Shown here piece after piece: positions 23,887 through 50,664 of a stretch of DNA of 64,000 nucleotides. How positions within the stretch are numbered: position 1 is the first letter of the stretch; the number at the start of each line of letters is the position of its first letter. This DNA is from Pseudomonadota bacterium (GTDB taxonomy: Bacteria; Desulfobacterota; Desulfobulbia; Desulfobulbales; Desulfocapsaceae). The DNA lies in assembly GCA_023412495.1 (NCBI GenBank), contig JAEYNP010000016.1:1-64000 (forward strand), in the 5' to 3' direction. The notes below the pieces were generated by a model. The model was not told the origin of the DNA and searched no databases. It worked only from the letters and a program-made list of their open reading frames with translations. The position numbers were made by a program, and so were the translations under genes.

Positions 23887-23959
23887 CCCACCTGTGCCGG
23901 AATCTTCGTTGCGATTCCGGCACCTTTTCCCCTCATCCGGCGTGTGCCGGAGATCCTTA

Positions 23960-24349
23960 TTATTTCTCTTCCACCGGGTATTTGGCCCGGGACCACTCCT
24001 GCCAGCCGCCTTTCAGGGCATAACTTTTGCTGTAACCTTGATCGATAAGTTTCTGTGCCAAACTGGCACTGGTACCTTCATTCGGTCAAGCACAGTAGAG
24101 AACGAAGGTATTTTCCTTGGGATAGTTGTTTACCACCGAAAGGTCGCTGCCTTCCACCCTGACTGCATCCTTGATCTTGTACTCGCTGGTGCTCCAGTCC
24201 CTGCCTTGGCGCACGTCGAGGATCACCAGGTCTTTCTGGCCGAGCATCGCTTTCAGTTCATCCTTGTCCATTCTCGGCGCCTGATCGGCAAAGGCGACCG
24301 AGCCTGCGCAGAATATGAGAACAATAAGCCATGTGAGAACGCTTTTCAT
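23960..24349 (-). CDS. Secreted rhodanese-like protein with in-frame UGA, probable selenoprotein
   Basis: A 129-residue reading frame if the UGA at 24086-24088 is read as selenocysteine (Sec88). The first 21 residues are a signal peptide (KSVLTWLIVLIFCAGSVAFA). A rhodanese domain follows, with LVILDVRQGRDW, and VLYCA just before the UGA. After it the same frame reads PNEGTSASLAQKL, then KGGWQEW, and ends at TAA. In homologous rhodaneses the active-site loop is YCACPNE, so the UGA falls exactly where a Cys is expected. A hairpin fitting the bacterial SECIS form follows. Without recoding the protein would stop at 87 residues and lose its second half. A simple nonsense mutation is possible but less likely, given the continued coding. 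Confidence 0.85.
24052..24088 (-). promoter_or_regulatory. Candidate bacterial SECIS element
   Basis: On the minus strand, 16 bases after the UGA, GTGCC pairs with GGCAC around the loop AGTTT. The loop starts 22 bases after the UGA and has a G at its second position. Both agree with the known bacterial SECIS pattern (short apical loop containing an early G, about 16-37 bases after the codon). Confidence 0.7.
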
Positions 24350-24364
24350 AGAATGCCTCCTTTG

Positions 24365-24428
24365 AGTACCTCAGAAAAATATTCTTTCGCAATTTCATGA
24401 AGGTAGTTATCCCCCCTTGTGGGGGTGT
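24365..24428 (-). repeat. Dispersed multi-hairpin repeat, copy G (degenerate or truncated)
   Basis: On the plus strand it reads AGTACCTCAGAAA, then CAATTTCATGAAGGTA, then TTATCCCC with a CCCCTTGTGGGG hairpin. It matches the AAGGTACT-proximal part of the family and lacks the GCGGGC hairpin. The last codons of the neighbouring permease gene lie inside it. Confidence 0.6.
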
Positions 24429-25669
24429 ATGTTGTTGCTAGCCGGACTACGCCTCCCGCCGAGCCTGTGCAAGGCGGTTGAAAAAAGGCCGCCGGCGGCC
24501 AGGACCGGCACACAGAAACCGAAAAGCAGCCGCGGTTGCGGATATGTAAACGCCAGGTAGGCCACAGCAGCCAGGATCAGCCCGCCGATGGCATAGCCTG
24601 ACGAGGAATGTTTTGCCCGCTGCCTGCGCAGATGAACAGCGGAGAAGAGACAATTCGCACCGATGGCCAATTGCCACAGGAGCAGGGACCCGAAGACGAA
24701 GACCTCCAGGTTTTCGCTGCCCGCAAGTCCAAGGGCCAGAAGCAGGGCGATGACCGCTGCCATCAAGACGGCATGGATCCTGGGCAACCAGGTCGAGGGG
24801 GCAATCTTCGGGATAAGCTGTCGAACTGTGCCTATGGCGAGGTAAAAAAGGCCATTTACGGCGCCGCAGGTCCCGCTGATGATGGCGATCCCCATGAGGA
24901 TGCGCCCGGTCTGGCCAAGTATTTCCCTGGCAGCGACCACGTAGGGCACCGAAGATTCGGCAAGCCGTGCATGCGGGATATGCGAGAGCGATGCCAGACC
25001 CCAGAGGACGAGCAGGAGAAAACCAAGACCGACAGCGCCTGGGTAAAAACGGTTCTTCCCGACCTTGTCTTTCGGGAGTTGCTGATCGTAACCAAGAAAG
25101 AAAAGCATCGCCAGCGGGACGGTGGCGAGGATGTCTTTTGCTGTTCCTGCCGGTGCAGCCGGACCGGTATTCTGCGGCGGTCCGGCCAGGAGACCGGCCA
25201 GGGCGAGCAGCAGCAGGCATGAAGCGGTCAGACCGAAGAAAACCTGCTGTGCGGCAAGAACAACCCTTTCCCCGCTCAGATAGAGGATCAGAACCAGCAA
25301 GAGCAGGAGAAAACTGAAACCGAAGTTGGGAAACCAATAGACAAAGGTCTCATTGAAGGTGAAGCCGGCAGTGACCAGCATCCCTGTCGAGAAAAAGAGA
25401 GGAGGGCTGAGTCGACCGGCGAGGGTCAGCGTAACTTCGGCAAACCTCCCGGCTTCGGTGTCGGGAAGCCCTCGATCATTTTCCCGAGATGCTGCCGTCG
25501 GGCGACGGATGATGAGGGCCGCCGCGGCGGACAGCGCTGCCCCCGCCAGCAGGGCGATTCCGAAAGCCCAGCCGTGTCGGCCAAAGCCGTTCCCCAGCAA
25601 TACCAGCACATCCGGAGAGATTGCCCAGCAGAGAATGAAACTTGCAGTGAGAAGAAATGACCGGGGCAT
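24407..25669 (-). CDS. APC-like amino acid permease family protein
   Basis: A 420-residue integral membrane protein with about 11-12 hydrophobic helices. The N-terminal repeat and a GTCGAVNGLFYLAIGTVRQL segment suggest the APC/amino acid permease superfamily, but I cannot name the substrate. The cytoplasmic loop QLPKDKVGKNRF after helix 6 is hydrophilic. The last residues (NIHPHKGG) are encoded within repeat copy G, so the natural C-terminus may have been altered by insertion of the repeat. It is on the same strand as the rhodanese gene but 57 bases upstream of it; the two may share a transcript. Confidence 0.7.
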   Translation of the reverse strand: MPRSFLLTASFILCWAISPDVLVLLGNGFGRHGWAFGIALLAGAALSAAAALIIRRPTAASRENDRGLPDTEAGRFAEVTLTLAGRLSPPLFFSTGMLVTAGFTFNETFVYWFPNFGFSFLLLLLVLILYLSGERVVLAAQQVFFGLTASCLLLLALAGLLAGPPQNTGPAAPAGTAKDILATVPLAMLFFLGYDQQLPKDKVGKNRFYPGAVGLGFLLLVLWGLASLSHIPHARLAESSVPYVVAAREILGQTGRILMGIAIISGTCGAVNGLFYLAIGTVRQLIPKIAPSTWLPRIHAVLMAAVIALLLALGLAGSENLEVFVFGSLLLWQLAIGANCLFSAVHLRRQRAKHSSSGYAIGGLILAAVAYLAFTYPQPRLLFGFCVPVLAAGGLFSTALHRLGGRRSPASNNIHPHKGG

Positions 25670-43936: not shown

Positions 43937-44047
43937 GACAGTTTTGCCTGTTGACAGTTGCCACGAAGCGAGAGACTATACGCAAAATACTGGCATATGC
44001 ACGTAATAACACATTGTAGTAGTCGAATGCATCGAAAGGAGGAGCTT

Positions 44048-45742
44048 ATGGCAGCACAAAAAATCGTGGTCATCGGCGGTTCGGCGGCAGGGGCGAAGGC
44101 CGCTGCTAAGGCGAGACGGCTGGACCAGCAGGCCGAGATAACCATTATTCAGAAAGAACCCGATCTCTCCATGGCCGCCTGCGGCTACCCTTATTATGTG
44201 GGCGGGGTTTTCAATGATCGGAAGATGTTGCTTGCCACTCCCACGGGTGTGGTCCGCGACCCGACGTTCTTTGCAAAAACCAAAAACATCAAGGCCCACA
44301 CGCTGACCGAAGCGGTGGCCATCGACCCGCGGAAAAAGGAGATTGTCTGCCGCGACCTCAAGACTGCACGGGAGTGGACTATTCCCTACGACAAGCTGAT
44401 TCTCAGCACCGGCGCTTCCGCCGTTCCGCTCCCTGTACCTGGAGTGGAACTTGCCGGGGTGACCAACCTGCTCTCCATGGCCGATACGGATTTTCTGCGG
44501 ACGGTGAGGGACGAAAAGAAGGCCTCACGGGCGGTAGTCATCGGCGGCGGCCTGATCGGTGTCGAAACATGCGAGGCTCTGCGTGTGTCTGGGCTCGATG
44601 TGGCCCTGGTGGAGATGGCGCCGCGGATCCTTACCTTTCTGGATCCGCAGCTGGCAGGGCTTGTTGAAAACCATATGCGGGGTAAGGGTGTCAAGGTGTT
44701 GACCGGAACCGCCCTAAAAGGCTTCCTCGGCGAGGCCGGCAGGCTCGCCGCGGTCCGGCTGCAAAACGATGCCATCATCGACTGCGAGGTGGCTGTGGTG
44801 GCGACCGGGGTGCGGCCGAACGTGCAATTGGCAAAATCTGCCGGACTTGCCATCGGCGAATTGGGAGGTATTGTCGTGGATGAGCACATGGCGACCTCCG
44901 ATCCGGATATCTTTGCCGCCGGCGACTGCGTGGAAGTGGAGCATTTGCTTACCGGGCGGAAGGTGCTCGCGCCCATGGGCGACCTGGCCAATCTCCAGGG
45001 CCGGGTGGCGGGGGAGAATGCGGCCACCGGCGGAAATATCGCTTTCCCTGGCACGATCCAGACGACGATCTGCAAGGTCTTCGATTTTGCCGCGGGATCC
45101 GCGGGACTCACCGAAGAGGCAGCCGAACGACATGGTTTTTCGACTATTTCCGTTGTCAACGCCAGCCCGGACAGACCGGGTTTCATGGGCGCGGGGCTCT
45201 TGGTTTCGAAGATCGTCGCCGAAAAATCGAGCGGGCGGATTCTCGGCTACCAGTGCGTCGGCAGCGGCGATGTCAGTCGGCAGCTGGCGACCGCCGCCAT
45301 GGCCATTCAGGGGGGGATGACCCTCGGCCGCCTCACTTGCCTCGATTTGCCCTATGCGCCGCCCTTTTCACTGGCCATCGATCATTTCATCGCCTCGGCC
45401 CACATTCTCGAGAACAAGTTAAAGGGAAGGTTGAAGACAATTACCGCAGCGGAGGTGAAAGAGAGGATCGGCAGGGAACCGCTACCCTTCCTGCTCGACG
45501 GCCGCGGGCCGGACGAGTACGAAGCGCTGCGCCTCGGCATCGGTGAACGGTATATTCCGCTGGGAGCCCTGCGGGACAAGCTCGGCGAATTGCCGGCCGA
45601 CAAGGATGCGGAGATCATCTGCTTCTGCAAAATCAGTCTGCGCGGCTACGAAACGGCCCTGATTCTCGAAGCGAACGGCTGGACCAACGTCCGGGTCATG
45701 GAGGGCGGAATAATGGCCTGGCCTTATGAGCGGGAGAAATAA
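44048..45742 (+). CDS. CoA-disulfide reductase-like flavoprotein fused to a rhodanese domain
   Basis: A 564-residue fusion. FAD motif IVVIGGSAAGAKAAAKARR is at the start, and the single active-site Cys is in SMAACGYPYYVGG near residue 42, as in CoA-disulfide reductases. The NADH site is VVIGGGLIGVETCEAL near 160, and ATSDPDIFAAGDCVEVEH closes the FAD fold. From about residue 475 a rhodanese domain follows (LLDGRGPDEYEALRLG) with its Cys in FCKISLRGYETALIL. This CoADR-RHD layout is known for enzymes reducing CoA disulfide/persulfide or sulfur. It fits anaerobic sulfur metabolism. AAAGGAGGAG precedes the ATG. Confidence 0.88.
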   Translation: MAAQKIVVIGGSAAGAKAAAKARRLDQQAEITIIQKEPDLSMAACGYPYYVGGVFNDRKMLLATPTGVVRDPTFFAKTKNIKAHTLTEAVAIDPRKKEIVCRDLKTAREWTIPYDKLILSTGASAVPLPVPGVELAGVTNLLSMADTDFLRTVRDEKKASRAVVIGGGLIGVETCEALRVSGLDVALVEMAPRILTFLDPQLAGLVENHMRGKGVKVLTGTALKGFLGEAGRLAAVRLQNDAIIDCEVAVVATGVRPNVQLAKSAGLAIGELGGIVVDEHMATSDPDIFAAGDCVEVEHLLTGRKVLAPMGDLANLQGRVAGENAATGGNIAFPGTIQTTICKVFDFAAGSAGLTEEAAERHGFSTISVVNASPDRPGFMGAGLLVSKIVAEKSSGRILGYQCVGSGDVSRQLATAAMAIQGGMTLGRLTCLDLPYAPPFSLAIDHFIASAHILENKLKGRLKTITAAEVKERIGREPLPFLLDGRGPDEYEALRLGIGERYIPLGALRDKLGELPADKDAEIICFCKISLRGYETALILEANGWTNVRVMEGGIMAWPYEREK

Positions 45743-47326: not shown

Positions 47327-49684
47327 TTACACCAGCTCCTGCTCAGTCCGGCTGATGATCTCCTCCTGATGCTCCAGGTCGAGGTCGACAAAGTAGTCGC
47401 TATAGCCGGCTACCCGGACAAGGAGGTTGCGGTACTCGTCGGGATGTTGCTGGGCGTTGCGCAGGGTCCCGGTGTCAACCACATTGAACTGGATGTGGTG
47501 ACCGCCCAAAGTGAAGTAGGTCCGGATGAGGCTGCCCAGCTTGTCGAGATCCTGCTCAGTCTTCAGGACGCTCGGCAAAAAGCGCTGGTTGAGCAGGGTC
47601 CCGCCGGATTTCAGCTGGTCCATTTTGGCGAGGGACTTGATCACCGCGGTCGGGCCGTTGCGGTCGGCGCCGTGGGACGGCGAGGTGCCGTCGGACTCGG
47701 GCAGATGGGCGAAACGGCCGTTGGCGGAGGCCCCGAGCATCCGGCCGAAGTAGACGTGGCAAGTGGTGGACAGCATGTTGAGGTGGTAGACGGTGCCCTT
47801 GGTGTTGGCGCGGCCGTCGATGGTCGTAAAGAGAGAGGCGTAGACCTGCTTCATGATGTCGTCGGCCCGATCGTCGTCGTTGCCGTAGAAGGGTGTTTTG
47901 TTCCAGAGCTTGAGGCGAAGCGGCTCCTCGCCAGCGAAGTTGCCCTTCAGCGCGGCCAGCAGCCTGTCCATGGGAATGCCGCCCTCGAAGACATGGGTCT
48001 TGATCGCCGACAGGCTGTCGGTGATAGTGCCGATGCCGCAGCACTGGATATAGTTGGTGTTGTAGCGCGGCCCGCCGTCGTAGTAATCGCGGCCCTTCTC
48101 GATGCAGTCGTGGATGACCACGGAGAGGAACGGCGCCGGCGAATACTTGGCGTACATCCGCTCGATGTAGTTGTTCACCCTGATCTTCAGGTCGACCACG
48201 TACTCGAGCTGGCGGGAGAAGGCCTCGTAGAGCTCATCGAATGTGTGAAAGGAGGCCGGATCTCCGGTTTCTATAGTGATCATCCTGCCGGTCAGCTGGT
48301 CGCGGCCGTTGTTGAGCGTCACCTCCAGGATCTTCGGGACATTCAAATAGCCGGTGAGGATGTAGGCTTCCTTGCCGAAGGCCCCGGTCTCGATGCAGCC
48401 GCTGGTGCCGCCTTCCCGGGCGTCCTCCACGGTCTTGCCGACCCGCACCTGCTCCATGATCACCGCATCGGTGTTGAAAACCGAAGGATAGCCGTAGCCC
48501 TTGCGGATCACCCGCGCCGCGGCTTTCAGAAAGCGGTCCGGAGTCTTGCTGCTGATGTGGACGCTCGGCTGGGGCTGGAGGAGATGCAGCTCGTCCGAGA
48601 CCTCGAGGCAGAGGTAGGAGACCTCGCTCGTGGCATCGGCGCCGGACCGGTCGAGACCGCCGAGGTTGATCTGGGTGAAGTCGTTGTAGGTGCCGCTCTC
48701 CTTGGCGGTGACCCCGACCTTGGGCGGGGCGCTGTGGTTGTTGATCTTGATCCACAGGCAGGATAGCAGCTCTTTGGCCCGCTCACGGTCAAGGCTCCCC
48801 TCGGCCACCTCTTTTTCGTAAAAGGGACGGAGGTGCTGGTCGATGTGGCCTGGTGTCATGGCATCCCAGCCGTTCAGCTCGGTGATGGTGCCGAGATGGA
48901 CGAACCAGTACATCTGCAGGGCCTCGTGGAAGGTACGGGGCTTTTCCGCCGGCACACGTCGGCAGATCGCGGCAATCTGCGCGAGCTCCTCCCTCCGCTC
49001 GGGGTCTGCCGTTGCGGCGGCCATCTTTTCGGCGAGCTCCGCGTGACGTTCGGCAAAGAGAATCGCCGCATCGCAGGCGATGGCCATTGCCTGGAGCTGC
49101 TCCGCCTGGTCCGCCGCCTCCGGGTCATTGCCATAATCCAATCGGCCGAGCCGATCTGCGATCCTCTTCTTGAAATCGCTCATGCCCATAGTGAAGATCG
49201 TGCCGTCCAAAGCAGTGTGGCCGGGCGCCCGCTGCTCCATGAACTCGGTGAAGAGGCCCGCCTCGTAGGCAACCCGCCACTCCTCCGGAACCTGACTAAA
49301 AATGCGGTCACGCATCGAGCGGCCCTGCCAGTAGGGAATGACCTCTTCTTCATATCGGCGGATGTCTTCCTCGGCCACCCGATAGCTGGTCATGGCCCTG
49401 TCGTTCAGGATCCGCAAGTCCTCGGCGCTGTGGCAAGTGAGTTCGGGGAAGGTGGGCACCACTTTGGGGGCCGGGCCGCGCTCGCCGACCAGCAGCTCGC
49501 CCTCGCCGATGTAGAGCGTCTTGTGTTCGCAGATATGCTTGAAGCAGAGGGCCCGCAGCACAGGCAGAGAGTATTTGCCGTAGTTATCCCGATAGAATTC
49601 GGTTTCGAGGAGCGCCCGTTCGATGGAAATGGCGGGCTGGGCTTCAAAACTCTGCTGGCGCAGTCTGGTAATCCGGCTGTTCAT
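47327..49684 (-). CDS. Glycyl radical enzyme, trans-4-hydroxyproline dehydratase (HypD)-like
   Basis: A 785-residue member of the pyruvate formate-lyase family. The active-site Cys is in GGTSGCIETGAFGKEAY (near residue 430) and the radical Gly in LVRVAGYSDYF near the C-terminus. The GC(I/V)E motif marks the dehydratase/eliminase branch. Other stretches recalled from HypD are present: FTEFMEQRAPGHT, ELNGWDAMTPG, ESGTYNDF and GGTLLNQRF, including positions equivalent to the Asp, Ser and Phe of its substrate pocket. HypD makes pyrroline-5-carboxylate from 4-hydroxyproline. Its usual partner, P5C reductase, is not adjacent, so another hydroxylated substrate is possible. Confidence 0.82.
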   Translation of the reverse strand: MNSRITRLRQQSFEAQPAISIERALLETEFYRDNYGKYSLPVLRALCFKHICEHKTLYIGEGELLVGERGPAPKVVPTFPELTCHSAEDLRILNDRAMTSYRVAEEDIRRYEEEVIPYWQGRSMRDRIFSQVPEEWRVAYEAGLFTEFMEQRAPGHTALDGTIFTMGMSDFKKRIADRLGRLDYGNDPEAADQAEQLQAMAIACDAAILFAERHAELAEKMAAATADPERREELAQIAAICRRVPAEKPRTFHEALQMYWFVHLGTITELNGWDAMTPGHIDQHLRPFYEKEVAEGSLDRERAKELLSCLWIKINNHSAPPKVGVTAKESGTYNDFTQINLGGLDRSGADATSEVSYLCLEVSDELHLLQPQPSVHISSKTPDRFLKAAARVIRKGYGYPSVFNTDAVIMEQVRVGKTVEDAREGGTSGCIETGAFGKEAYILTGYLNVPKILEVTLNNGRDQLTGRMITIETGDPASFHTFDELYEAFSRQLEYVVDLKIRVNNYIERMYAKYSPAPFLSVVIHDCIEKGRDYYDGGPRYNTNYIQCCGIGTITDSLSAIKTHVFEGGIPMDRLLAALKGNFAGEEPLRLKLWNKTPFYGNDDDRADDIMKQVYASLFTTIDGRANTKGTVYHLNMLSTTCHVYFGRMLGASANGRFAHLPESDGTSPSHGADRNGPTAVIKSLAKMDQLKSGGTLLNQRFLPSVLKTEQDLDKLGSLIRTYFTLGGHHIQFNVVDTGTLRNAQQHPDEYRNLLVRVAGYSDYFVDLDLEHQEEIISRTEQELV

Positions 49685-49686
49685 GG

Positions 49687-50598
49687 TTATCCTCCGATTC
49701 GGACATCGTCGCTGTACTGCCTGAGTATCTCCACAATCCGGGAGAGGGTTTCGCCGGTTGGGGCGGTGAAAAGTGTTCCCTGATAAAATTTGTTCAGTTT
49801 CCGGTACTTGGCGGTGGCGGAAGGATGGTAGGGAAGGACGTCGATGCCTTCCACGCTGCGGCAGCCGGCGGCAAAGGCCCCGGTGGCATGAATGTTTTGC
49901 TCGTCGGCATTGACGCCTTCAATAAGGGGGATGCGGATCCTGATGGGTTTGCCGGTGGCGGCAAGAGCCTCAAGGTTTCTGAGGATCAGGTCGTTCCCCA
50001 CTCCGGTAAAATGTTCATGGCGCTTGCCGTCCATGAGTTTCACATCGAAGAGAAAGAGTTCCGCAACCTCGGCGATACGCAGCAGTGTTTCAGTGGGGGC
50101 AAAGCCGCTGGTGTCGACTGCCCGATGAATGCCGAGCGACCCACAGGCCACAAGCAGAGCGAAGAGGGCCTCGGGTTGGCAGAGCGGTTCCCCGCCGGAG
50201 CAGGTGACACCGCCGCCGGATTGGTCGAAAAAAGGCAGATCCTTCTTGATTTCCAGGAGCAGCTCGTCTATCCCCATCCGCCAGCCGGTCGACTCGTGGG
50301 CCAGCGCCGGACAGATGTCGATACAGGTCCGGCACAGGGTGCAGAGAGCCTCCTCGCGGCGGATGCCCTCCGGCGTCATCCGCAAAACCTTCTCCGGACA
50401 GCTTTCGACGCACTCGCGGCACCCCACGCACTTCTCCTCCAGGCTCAGCATCCTTATCTTGAAATCCATACCCTCGGGATTATGGCACCAATGGCAGGCC
50501 AGGGGACAGCCCTTGAAGAAGATGGTTGTCCGAATATTGGGCCCGTCATGCAAGGCGTAGCGTTTGATGGCGAATATGGTGGCGGTGAGAGTAGTCAT
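49687..50598 (-). CDS. Glycyl radical enzyme activase (radical SAM)
   Basis: A 303-residue radical SAM protein. The SAM cluster motif is KGCPLACHWCHNPEG near residue 27. A ferredoxin-like insert follows with two clusters, CVGCRECVESCP and CTLCRTCIDICP, as in activases of non-PFL glycyl radical enzymes. TCSGGEPLCQPE is the next SAM-binding motif. It should install the glycyl radical in the enzyme encoded two bases downstream, with which it must be cotranscribed. ATG at 50598 is chosen over a TTG five codons upstream; neither has a strong ribosome site. Confidence 0.92.
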   Translation of the reverse strand: MTTLTATIFAIKRYALHDGPNIRTTIFFKGCPLACHWCHNPEGMDFKIRMLSLEEKCVGCRECVESCPEKVLRMTPEGIRREEALCTLCRTCIDICPALAHESTGWRMGIDELLLEIKKDLPFFDQSGGGVTCSGGEPLCQPEALFALLVACGSLGIHRAVDTSGFAPTETLLRIAEVAELFLFDVKLMDGKRHEHFTGVGNDLILRNLEALAATGKPIRIRIPLIEGVNADEQNIHATGAFAAGCRSVEGIDVLPYHPSATAKYRKLNKFYQGTLFTAPTGETLSRIVEILRQYSDDVRIGG

Positions 50599-50664
50599 GC
50601 TGCAATGAAACAATAAATATCATTATCGAGCAATATAACTTTTGCAGGCAAAGAAGACTATTTT

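What the first reader, a model, noticed from the sequence alone, without database searches (positions are those of the whole stretch)
23960..24349. Secreted rhodanese with UGA at the expected active-site position: probable selenoprotein with SECIS
The minus-strand frame continues for 41 sensible codons past an in-frame UGA (24086-24088). The UGA replaces the Cys expected in the rhodanese loop YCACPNE; the text reads YCA-UGA-PNE. A stem GTGCC/GGCAC with loop AGTTT starts 16 bases after the UGA, matching the bacterial SECIS form. Rhodanese-like selenoproteins have been predicted in anaerobic Deltaproteobacteria, so the idea is not wholly new, but this copy has a signal peptide and would place a selenol in the periplasm. 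Automatic annotation would cut it at 87 residues.
Basis: partly seen in the sequence, partly recalled or inferred. Interest (0 to 1): 0.82.

Follow-up and report, generated by a model that had tools for sequence, protein, structure and literature searches.

The report
Secreted selenocysteine rhodanese with permease partner
This bacterial gene has a stop-like codon in its middle that is almost certainly read as the rare amino acid selenocysteine, making a small, probably exported sulfur-handling protein of an already catalogued family; what looks new is the transporter gene that travels with it and relatives that carry two selenocysteines.

Summary
The 129-residue read-through product matches NCBIfam NF041203, 'rhodanese-related (seleno)protein' (178.7 bits, cut-off 115), listed in a 2026 review as rhodanese form 3, CxU. 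Of 70 homologous loci, 69 have UGA at this codon, one UGT. In a broader sample 89 of 102 matches contain a UGA. The hairpin after the UGA is 99.4% paired over 71 sequences, with changes on both sides of the stem. SelB is present in 22 of 23 carrier genomes tested; the window's own genome is not held.

Correction: the canonical rhodanese cysteine is probably Cys86, which is kept; the UGA is a second loop position.

Two additions, not found in the papers searched: (1) a divergent APC-type permease lies upstream in 53 of 71 loci, and in two genome samples every strong permease match is beside the rhodanese; (2) in 12 of 395 genomes the kept cysteine is UGA too, a UxU subfamily. Substrate and function are unknown.

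The parts
23960..24349 (-). Selenoprotein gene, NF041203 (rhodanese_LYCAU) family; 129 residues with Sec88, TAA stop
   Evidence: Pfam Rhodanese 48.5 bits; NF041203 178.7 bits
24086..24088 (-). In-frame UGA, read as selenocysteine 88
   Evidence: UGA in 69 of 70 homologous loci, UGT in one; curated selenoprotein family
24092..24094 (-). Cys86 codon, probable canonical rhodanese catalytic cysteine; C of the CxU pair
   Evidence: profile-profile alignment; UGA instead in the UxU subfamily
24055..24069 (-). Bacterial SECIS apical hairpin GUGCC-AGUUU-GGCAC, 16 nt after the UGA
   Evidence: 99.4% of cells paired over 71 sequences, 11 cells changed on both sides
24287..24349 (-). Probable signal peptide, residues 1-21 (MKSVLTWLIVLIFCAGSVAFA)
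   Evidence: by eye; lower model confidence over residues 1-20 (block means 60 and 58); no signal-peptide predictor available
24356..24363 (-). Likely ribosome-binding site AAAGGAGG
   Evidence: sequence
24407..25669 (-). Upstream partner: divergent APC-superfamily permease, 420 aa, 57 bp before the rhodanese start
   Evidence: 53 of 71 loci; AdiC, E 7e-9; model pLDDT 90.2; AdiC, SLC7 and BasC folds; strong matches only beside the rhodanese

Best explanation
The gene encodes a probably exported single-domain rhodanese in which the in-frame UGA is decoded as selenocysteine by SelB and tRNA-Sec, directed by the hairpin 16 nt downstream. The protein is a member of the catalogued NF041203 family. 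Its active-site loop most likely keeps the canonical rhodanese cysteine (Cys86) and adds Sec88 two residues later, a CxU pair. Shown by comparison: UGA conservation, coding selection after the UGA, SECIS covariation, SelB in carrier relatives, and the linked permease. Inferred: export; Cys86 takes sulfane sulfur (or selenium) as a persulfide in the periplasm, and Sec88 resolves or reduces it through a selenenylsulfide; the upstream APC-type permease moves the donor, acceptor or product (perhaps an amino-acid persulfide or cystine-like compound) across the inner membrane. The confidence below is for selenocysteine at this UGA; for the detailed function I would say about 0.3.
For: NF041203 at 178.7 bits against cut-off 115. 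102 of the 120 listed phmmer hits (150 found) are 86-88 aa, the length of a product ending at this UGA. UGA in 69 of 70 loci, UGT in one. Post-UGA dN well below dS in the three pairs where dS could be computed. SECIS helix 99.4% paired, with 9 U-A to C-G and 2 further double changes; 0 of 500 shuffles reach the number of double-change cells or the covariation score. Hairpin serine AGY in 71 of 71, against 215 of 572 serines elsewhere in the same genes. Helix complete in 68 of 70 CxU sequences and 13 of 13 UxU loci, but in only 2 of 16 loci without Sec at 88. SelB over cut-off in 22 of 23 carriers and in 12 of 12 UxU genomes. tRNA-Sec at 66 bits or more in 16 of 23, ARAGORN agreeing in the closest relative G001. 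One Cys form (L082) lies in a genome with no SelB match at E up to 1e-60 (G114). Permease adjacency. Rhodanese fold.
Against: The window's own genome is not held, so its selA-D were not seen. SelB is common in this order (104 of 116), so its presence in carriers discriminates weakly; SelA and SelD were not searched. 4 of 23 carriers gave no tRNA-Sec over the Rfam cut-off, and the over-cut-off hit in G003 is called tRNA-Cys by ARAGORN. The 69 of 70 comes from patterns drawn mostly from Sec forms; broader samples hold more non-Sec copies (13 of 102 matches without TGA; 3 of 21 strong ones). Seven more genomes with stop-free copies do have SelB, so lack of SelB does not explain most non-Sec forms. 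One covariation measure (pairs with a double change) is reached by 37 of 500 shuffles. 18 of 71 loci lack the adjacent permease, two of them (L006, L054) with too little upstream sequence to tell. Nothing here tests substrate, direction of transport or catalytic role.
Confidence: 0.95

Rival explanations
1. The UGA is a true stop and the gene is decaying or makes a short 87-residue protein.
For: Databases annotate 87-aa proteins; the window's own sel genes were not seen.
Against: UGA conserved in 69 of 70 loci, selection after it, covarying hairpin. The 87-aa product would lack the helices and strands from residue 92 on.
Confidence: 0.02
2. UGA is read as another amino acid (for example tryptophan, code 4) or by plain read-through.
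For: Several full-length database proteins carry Trp at position 88.
Against: None of 71 DNA sequences has UGG. Twelve of the 70 loci end the gene with UGA, so UGA also works as a stop there. P0005, P0008 and P0014 also show Trp just after the usual C-terminus, which points to code-4 gene calling (inference). A SECIS is present.
Confidence: 0.01
3. Sec88, not Cys86, is the residue homologous to the canonical catalytic cysteine, and Cys86 is the resolving residue at the end of the strand.
For: A sequence alignment to PDB 6mxv places position 88 on its loop cysteine, without gaps from there to the GGW motif.
Against: Profile alignment to plain rhodaneses pairs LYCA with LYCA and makes 88-89 an insertion. 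In the model Cys86 directly follows the strand 81-85. Cys86 is kept in 9 of 10 fetched loci with Ser or Ala at 88; L120 has lost both.
Confidence: 0.25
4. The protein is a redox enzyme (disulfide or peroxide reductase) rather than a sulfur or selenium transferase.
For: A CxU pair resembles thiol-selenol redox motifs; L063, a distant member, has a same-strand AhpC-TSA/redoxin gene 25 bp upstream.
Against: Rhodanese domain and fold; 53 of 71 loci sit with an APC permease.
Confidence: 0.3

Closest known systems
NCBIfam NF041203 rhodanese_LYCAU ('rhodanese-related (seleno)protein')
   Same: Full-length match well over the cut-off, same LYCAU motif; the review lists it as rhodanese form 3, CxU, one Sec.
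   Different: Nothing in the gene itself. The permease partner and the UxU relatives were not found in the papers searched.
Other selenocysteine rhodaneses (forms 1, 2, 4, 5 of PMC13188914)
   Same: Rhodanese-domain proteins with Sec.
   Different: Listed motifs are UxxS, UxxG, UxxG and UxxxxU. Loci L086-L090 show the loop Cys with UGA five residues later, not two; which listed form they belong to was not tested.
GlpE and plain single-domain rhodaneses
   Same: Fold and domain order (GlpE Foldseek E 3.3e-6).
   Different: Probable signal peptide, loop two residues longer, Sec added, Thr where plain rhodaneses have the loop Arg.
APC-superfamily amino-acid transporters (AdiC, BasC, SLC7)
   Same: The partner permease has this fold (AdiC TM-score 0.66-0.75) and distant sequence similarity (E 7e-9).
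   Different: No Pfam match, and no NCBIfam match beyond a 17.6-bit hit to AdiC (cut-off 574), at E up to 0.1; substrate unknown.

Membership tests
NF041203 rhodanese_LYCAU | score over curated cut-off across the full length | tested here: met
   178.7 bits against 115, profile 5-126 of 126 (scored on the read-through product with C for U)
NF041203 rhodanese_LYCAU | LYC-A-U motif | tested here: met
   VLYCA-UGA-PNE
Bacterial selenoprotein | in-frame UGA with conserved downstream coding | tested here: met
Bacterial selenoprotein | SECIS hairpin just 3' of the UGA with G early in the apical loop | tested here: met
   loop AGUUU; G at the second loop position in 71 of 71; the apical-G rule is recalled
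Bacterial selenoprotein | SelA, SelB, tRNA-Sec and SelD in the same genome | not testable with these tools
   no whole genome held; SelB in 22 of 23 carrier relatives; SelA and SelD not searched
Bacterial selenoprotein | selenium in the protein | not testable with these tools
   needs 75Se labelling or mass spectrometry
Rhodanese superfamily | domain over Pfam gathering score, and fold | tested here: met
   48.5 bits against 22.2; 106 Foldseek matches at E up to 0.001, the best a rhodanese-domain protein at 2.5e-8
Rhodanese superfamily | loop cysteine at the canonical place | tested here: inconclusive
   Cys86 by profile alignment, position 88 by one sequence alignment
Rhodanese superfamily | sulfurtransferase activity | not testable with these tools
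   needs an assay
APC superfamily (partner gene) | APC fold | tested here: met
   model pLDDT 90.2; AdiC TM-score 0.66-0.75
APC superfamily (partner gene) | curated APC family model match | tested here: not met
   no Pfam hit at E up to 0.1 for the three partners scanned; only a 17.6-bit NCBIfam hit, cut-off 574

The most novel reading that the evidence does not exclude
The rhodanese and the upstream permease form a dedicated chalcogen module at the inner membrane: a periplasmic Cys-Sec (CxU) loop carries sulfane sulfur or selenium, and an APC-type transporter, whose strong matches in the sampled genomes lie only beside this gene, moves the matching amino-acid-like persulfide or selenium compound. 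A related subfamily has gone further, to a Sec-x-Sec loop in which both residues of the pair are selenocysteine and could form a diselenide; in two loci it is fused to a probable multihaem cytochrome c.
Probability: 0.35. Interest if true: 0.65.

Novelty: new member of a known kind. Interest (0 to 1): 0.42.

Why it matters
The gene itself adds one more sequence to a catalogued selenoprotein family, some members of which are still annotated as 87-aa 'hypothetical protein' (P0003). The useful additions are leads to function. A permease gene without a Pfam family, whose strong matches in the sampled genomes occur only beside this rhodanese, gives a testable hint of what the family does. The natural series CxC, CxS, CxA, CxU and UxU at one pair of positions, with the SECIS helix complete in 81 of 83 Sec sequences and in only 2 of 16 loci without Sec at 88, is a compact record of selenocysteine gain and loss. 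Carriers among named DSM strains exist (L013, L026, L049), so protein and selenium can be tested directly.

Tried and rejected
Own genome: file and searches not available, so carrier relatives reached through loci were used instead. Rfam (gathering threshold) and ARAGORN on the window found nothing. The paper search for 'LYCAU' inside words found 211 papers, the 20 listed being unrelated; together with 'rhodanese' it found none. 'Rhodanese' with 'selenocysteine' and 'Desulfobulb' found none; 'NF041203' found only PMC13188914. 'Rhodanese' with 'selenoprotein', 'permease' and 'SECIS' listed five papers, of which I looked for the permease in one. The Haft papers and the Olavius paper are not held, so the permease or UxU forms could be described there. 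Passages of PMC8318568, PMC1088965, PMC2398784 and PMC1794560 gave only background. Rejected: stop codon or decay, code-4 Trp, strain-specific stop (see rivals). One pattern hit (L105) is not a rhodanese and was dropped from the UxU count. Downstream neighbours (glucokinase cluster in 13 loci, pyridine nucleotide-disulfide oxidoreductase in 10, VTT-domain gene in 9; one example of each annotated) were not pursued. Terminator- and promoter-like sites near the gene are consensus matches only.

Full report
What is there. On the minus strand the frame 24349-23960 reads ATG ... TAA with a single in-frame TGA at 24088-24086. The product is 129 residues: a probable signal peptide (by eye), a rhodanese domain (Pfam 48.5 bits) and the loop LYCA-U-PNEGTSA. 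NCBIfam gives NF041203, 'rhodanese-related (seleno)protein', at 178.7 bits against a cut-off of 115. So the family and its selenocysteine were known before this finding. I saw passages of two reviews: PMC13188914 lists 'Rhodanese-like domain-containing protein form 3, NF041203, CxU', and PMC9312934 lists 'COG0607 form 2, CxU'. The Haft papers and the Olavius paper are not held.

Is the UGA conserved? A scan of one genome per species (GTDB 220) gave 77 loci. Seven (L071-L077) are plain rhodaneses. Of the other 70, 69 have TGA at this codon and one, L054, has TGT. None has TGG, so Trp in some database proteins most likely reflects gene calling with code 4 (inference). 102 of the 120 listed phmmer hits (150 found) are 86-88 aa long, as if cut at the UGA. 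The scan's patterns were drawn mostly from Sec forms, so 69 of 70 overstates the share. Profile searches of whole genomes are less biased: in 116 genomes of the order, 21 matches at E up to 1e-30 split into 17 with one TGA, 1 with two and 3 with none (my count); in 395 genomes of a phylum sample, 102 matches at E up to 1e-24 split into 76 with one TGA (one of them with a TAA as well), 13 with two, 12 with none and 1 with a TAA alone (my count). The place of the stop was not inspected in most of the single-TGA matches. Codons after the UGA are under purifying selection (window against L001: dN 0.08, dS 1.17; L002: 0.06, 0.67; L003: 0.13, 1.25; L005: dN 0.14, dS saturated).

SECIS. Sixteen bases after the UGA stands GUGCC-AGUUU-GGCAC. 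Over 71 gap-free sequences (window plus 70 loci) 99.4% of 355 cells pair. Eleven cells change on both sides (0 of 500 shuffles reach that), 9 of them a U-A to C-G change made by silent changes in a serine and an alanine codon. The number of pairs with a double change (2) is reached by 37 of 500 shuffles, so that measure alone is weak. Sliding the 3' arm by 1-3 columns drops pairing to 22-49%. The serine in the hairpin is AGY in 71 of 71, against 215 of 572 serines elsewhere in the same genes. The helix is complete in 68 of 70 CxU sequences, in 13 of 13 UxU loci, and in 2 of 16 loci whose position 88 is not Sec (L054 Cys, L116 Ser); the background at this spacing is 0.8%.

Machinery. No genome is held for the window. 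I tested 23 of the 70 carrier genomes (22 with the Sec form, one, G019 of L054, with the Cys form): SelB is over the cut-off in 22; the exception is G020. tRNA-Sec is over the Rfam cut-off in 19 of 23 and at 66 bits or more in 16. Of four hits checked, ARAGORN agrees in G001, the closest relative, and G018, calls the G003 hit tRNA-Cys, and finds nothing in the truncated G002 hit. In the order-level sample SelB is over the cut-off in 104 of 116 genomes, so the association is permissive. One stop-free Cys copy (L082) lies in G114, which has no SelB match at E up to 1e-60. Against that, seven other genomes with stop-free copies all have SelB, so loss of SelB does not explain most non-Sec forms.

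Which residue is which. Profile-profile comparison with seven plain rhodaneses pairs LYCA with LYCA and makes positions 88-89 an insertion: Cys86 is then the canonical cysteine. In the model (pLDDT 89.7) Cys86 directly follows the strand 81-85. A sequence alignment to PDB 6mxv instead sets position 88 on the loop cysteine, so the point is not closed. Among the fetched loci with Ser or Ala at 88, Cys86 is kept in 9 of 10 (L112, which has a TAA just before it, L116-L119, L121-L123, L125); L120 has lost it. L124 has an ordinary rhodanese loop and is left out of that count.

UxU subfamily. All 13 two-TGA matches, in 12 genomes, read YU(A/S/T)U: both residues of the pair are UGA-coded (8 found by pattern and read; 5 fetched and read). 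The reversed control pattern gave no match, and one of its 9 hits (L105) is not a rhodanese. All 13 carry the complete helix. SelB is over the cut-off in 12 of 12 of these genomes (8, 4). L101 and L102 continue in frame into a protein with eight CxxCH motifs (by eye). The string 'UxU' is in neither review, and a search for it with 'selenoprotein' listed one paper, on neurodegenerative disease.

Permease partner. The gene at 25669-24407, 57 bp upstream on the same strand, is conserved at that place in 53 of 71 loci (52 of 70 plus the window; gaps up to 0.5 kb). Two of the 18 without it (L006, L054) have too little upstream sequence to tell. It has no Pfam match. Its profile (42 of the 53 partners) finds AdiC at E 7e-9, and its model (pLDDT 90.2) matches AdiC, BasC and SLC7 structures. 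In 116 genomes of the order it occurs in 9, each directly upstream of a TGA-bearing rhodanese. In 395 genomes of the phylum sample there are 13 matches in 12 genomes: the 11 strong ones (E 1.2e-54 or better) lie upstream on the same strand, within 0.6 kb; of the two weak ones (E about 1e-33 to 1e-32), one is 0.8 kb away on the other strand and one is alone. Two genomes (G014, G035) are in both samples. None of the 12 UxU genomes is among the 12 permease genomes. The two reviews do not mention such a partner in the passages found with 'permease' and 'amino acid transporter'.

How it most likely works. Shown by comparison: Sec decoding signals, selection, fold, operon-like partner. Inferred: export; Cys86 as persulfide carrier; Sec88 as resolving selenol; transport of a matching compound by the permease. 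Confidence is about 0.95 for Sec at this UGA and about 0.3 for the detailed function.

Verdict. It is a new member of a known kind. The permease linkage and the UxU forms are the parts worth following.

Noticed in passing
L098-L104, L106-L111: Homologues in which the kept loop cysteine is also UGA (YU(A/S/T)U), 13 loci in 12 of 395 genomes; complete SECIS helix in all 13.
   Followed up: partly
L101, L102: UxU rhodanese continues in frame into a protein with eight CxxCH motifs, a probable multihaem cytochrome (by eye).
   Followed up: no
L054:445-492, L116: Cys and Ser forms that still carry a complete SECIS helix, perhaps recent Sec losses (or sequencing errors).
   Followed up: partly
L086-L090: Other rhodaneses with a loop cysteine and an in-frame UGA five residues later, probably another selenorhodanese form.
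   Followed up: no
L084 (G001), L083 (G056): Homologues that seem by eye to lack a signal peptide, so some members may be cytoplasmic.
   Followed up: no
window 43958-45742: FAD/NAD disulfide reductase of the CoA-disulfide reductase type (346.7 bits to TIGR03385, below its cut-off 578.8).
   Followed up: partly
window 47327-50613: trans-4-hydroxy-L-proline dehydratase (1199.2 bits, cut-off 1100) with a glycyl-radical activase beside it.
   Followed up: partly
window 23894-23923: Inverted repeat GTGCCGGAATC/GATTCCGGCAC just downstream of the gene (by eye).
   Followed up: no
P0005, P0008, P0014: Database proteins with Trp at the Sec position, probably translated with code 4; P0014 reads YWAW and may be a further UxU form.
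   Followed up: no
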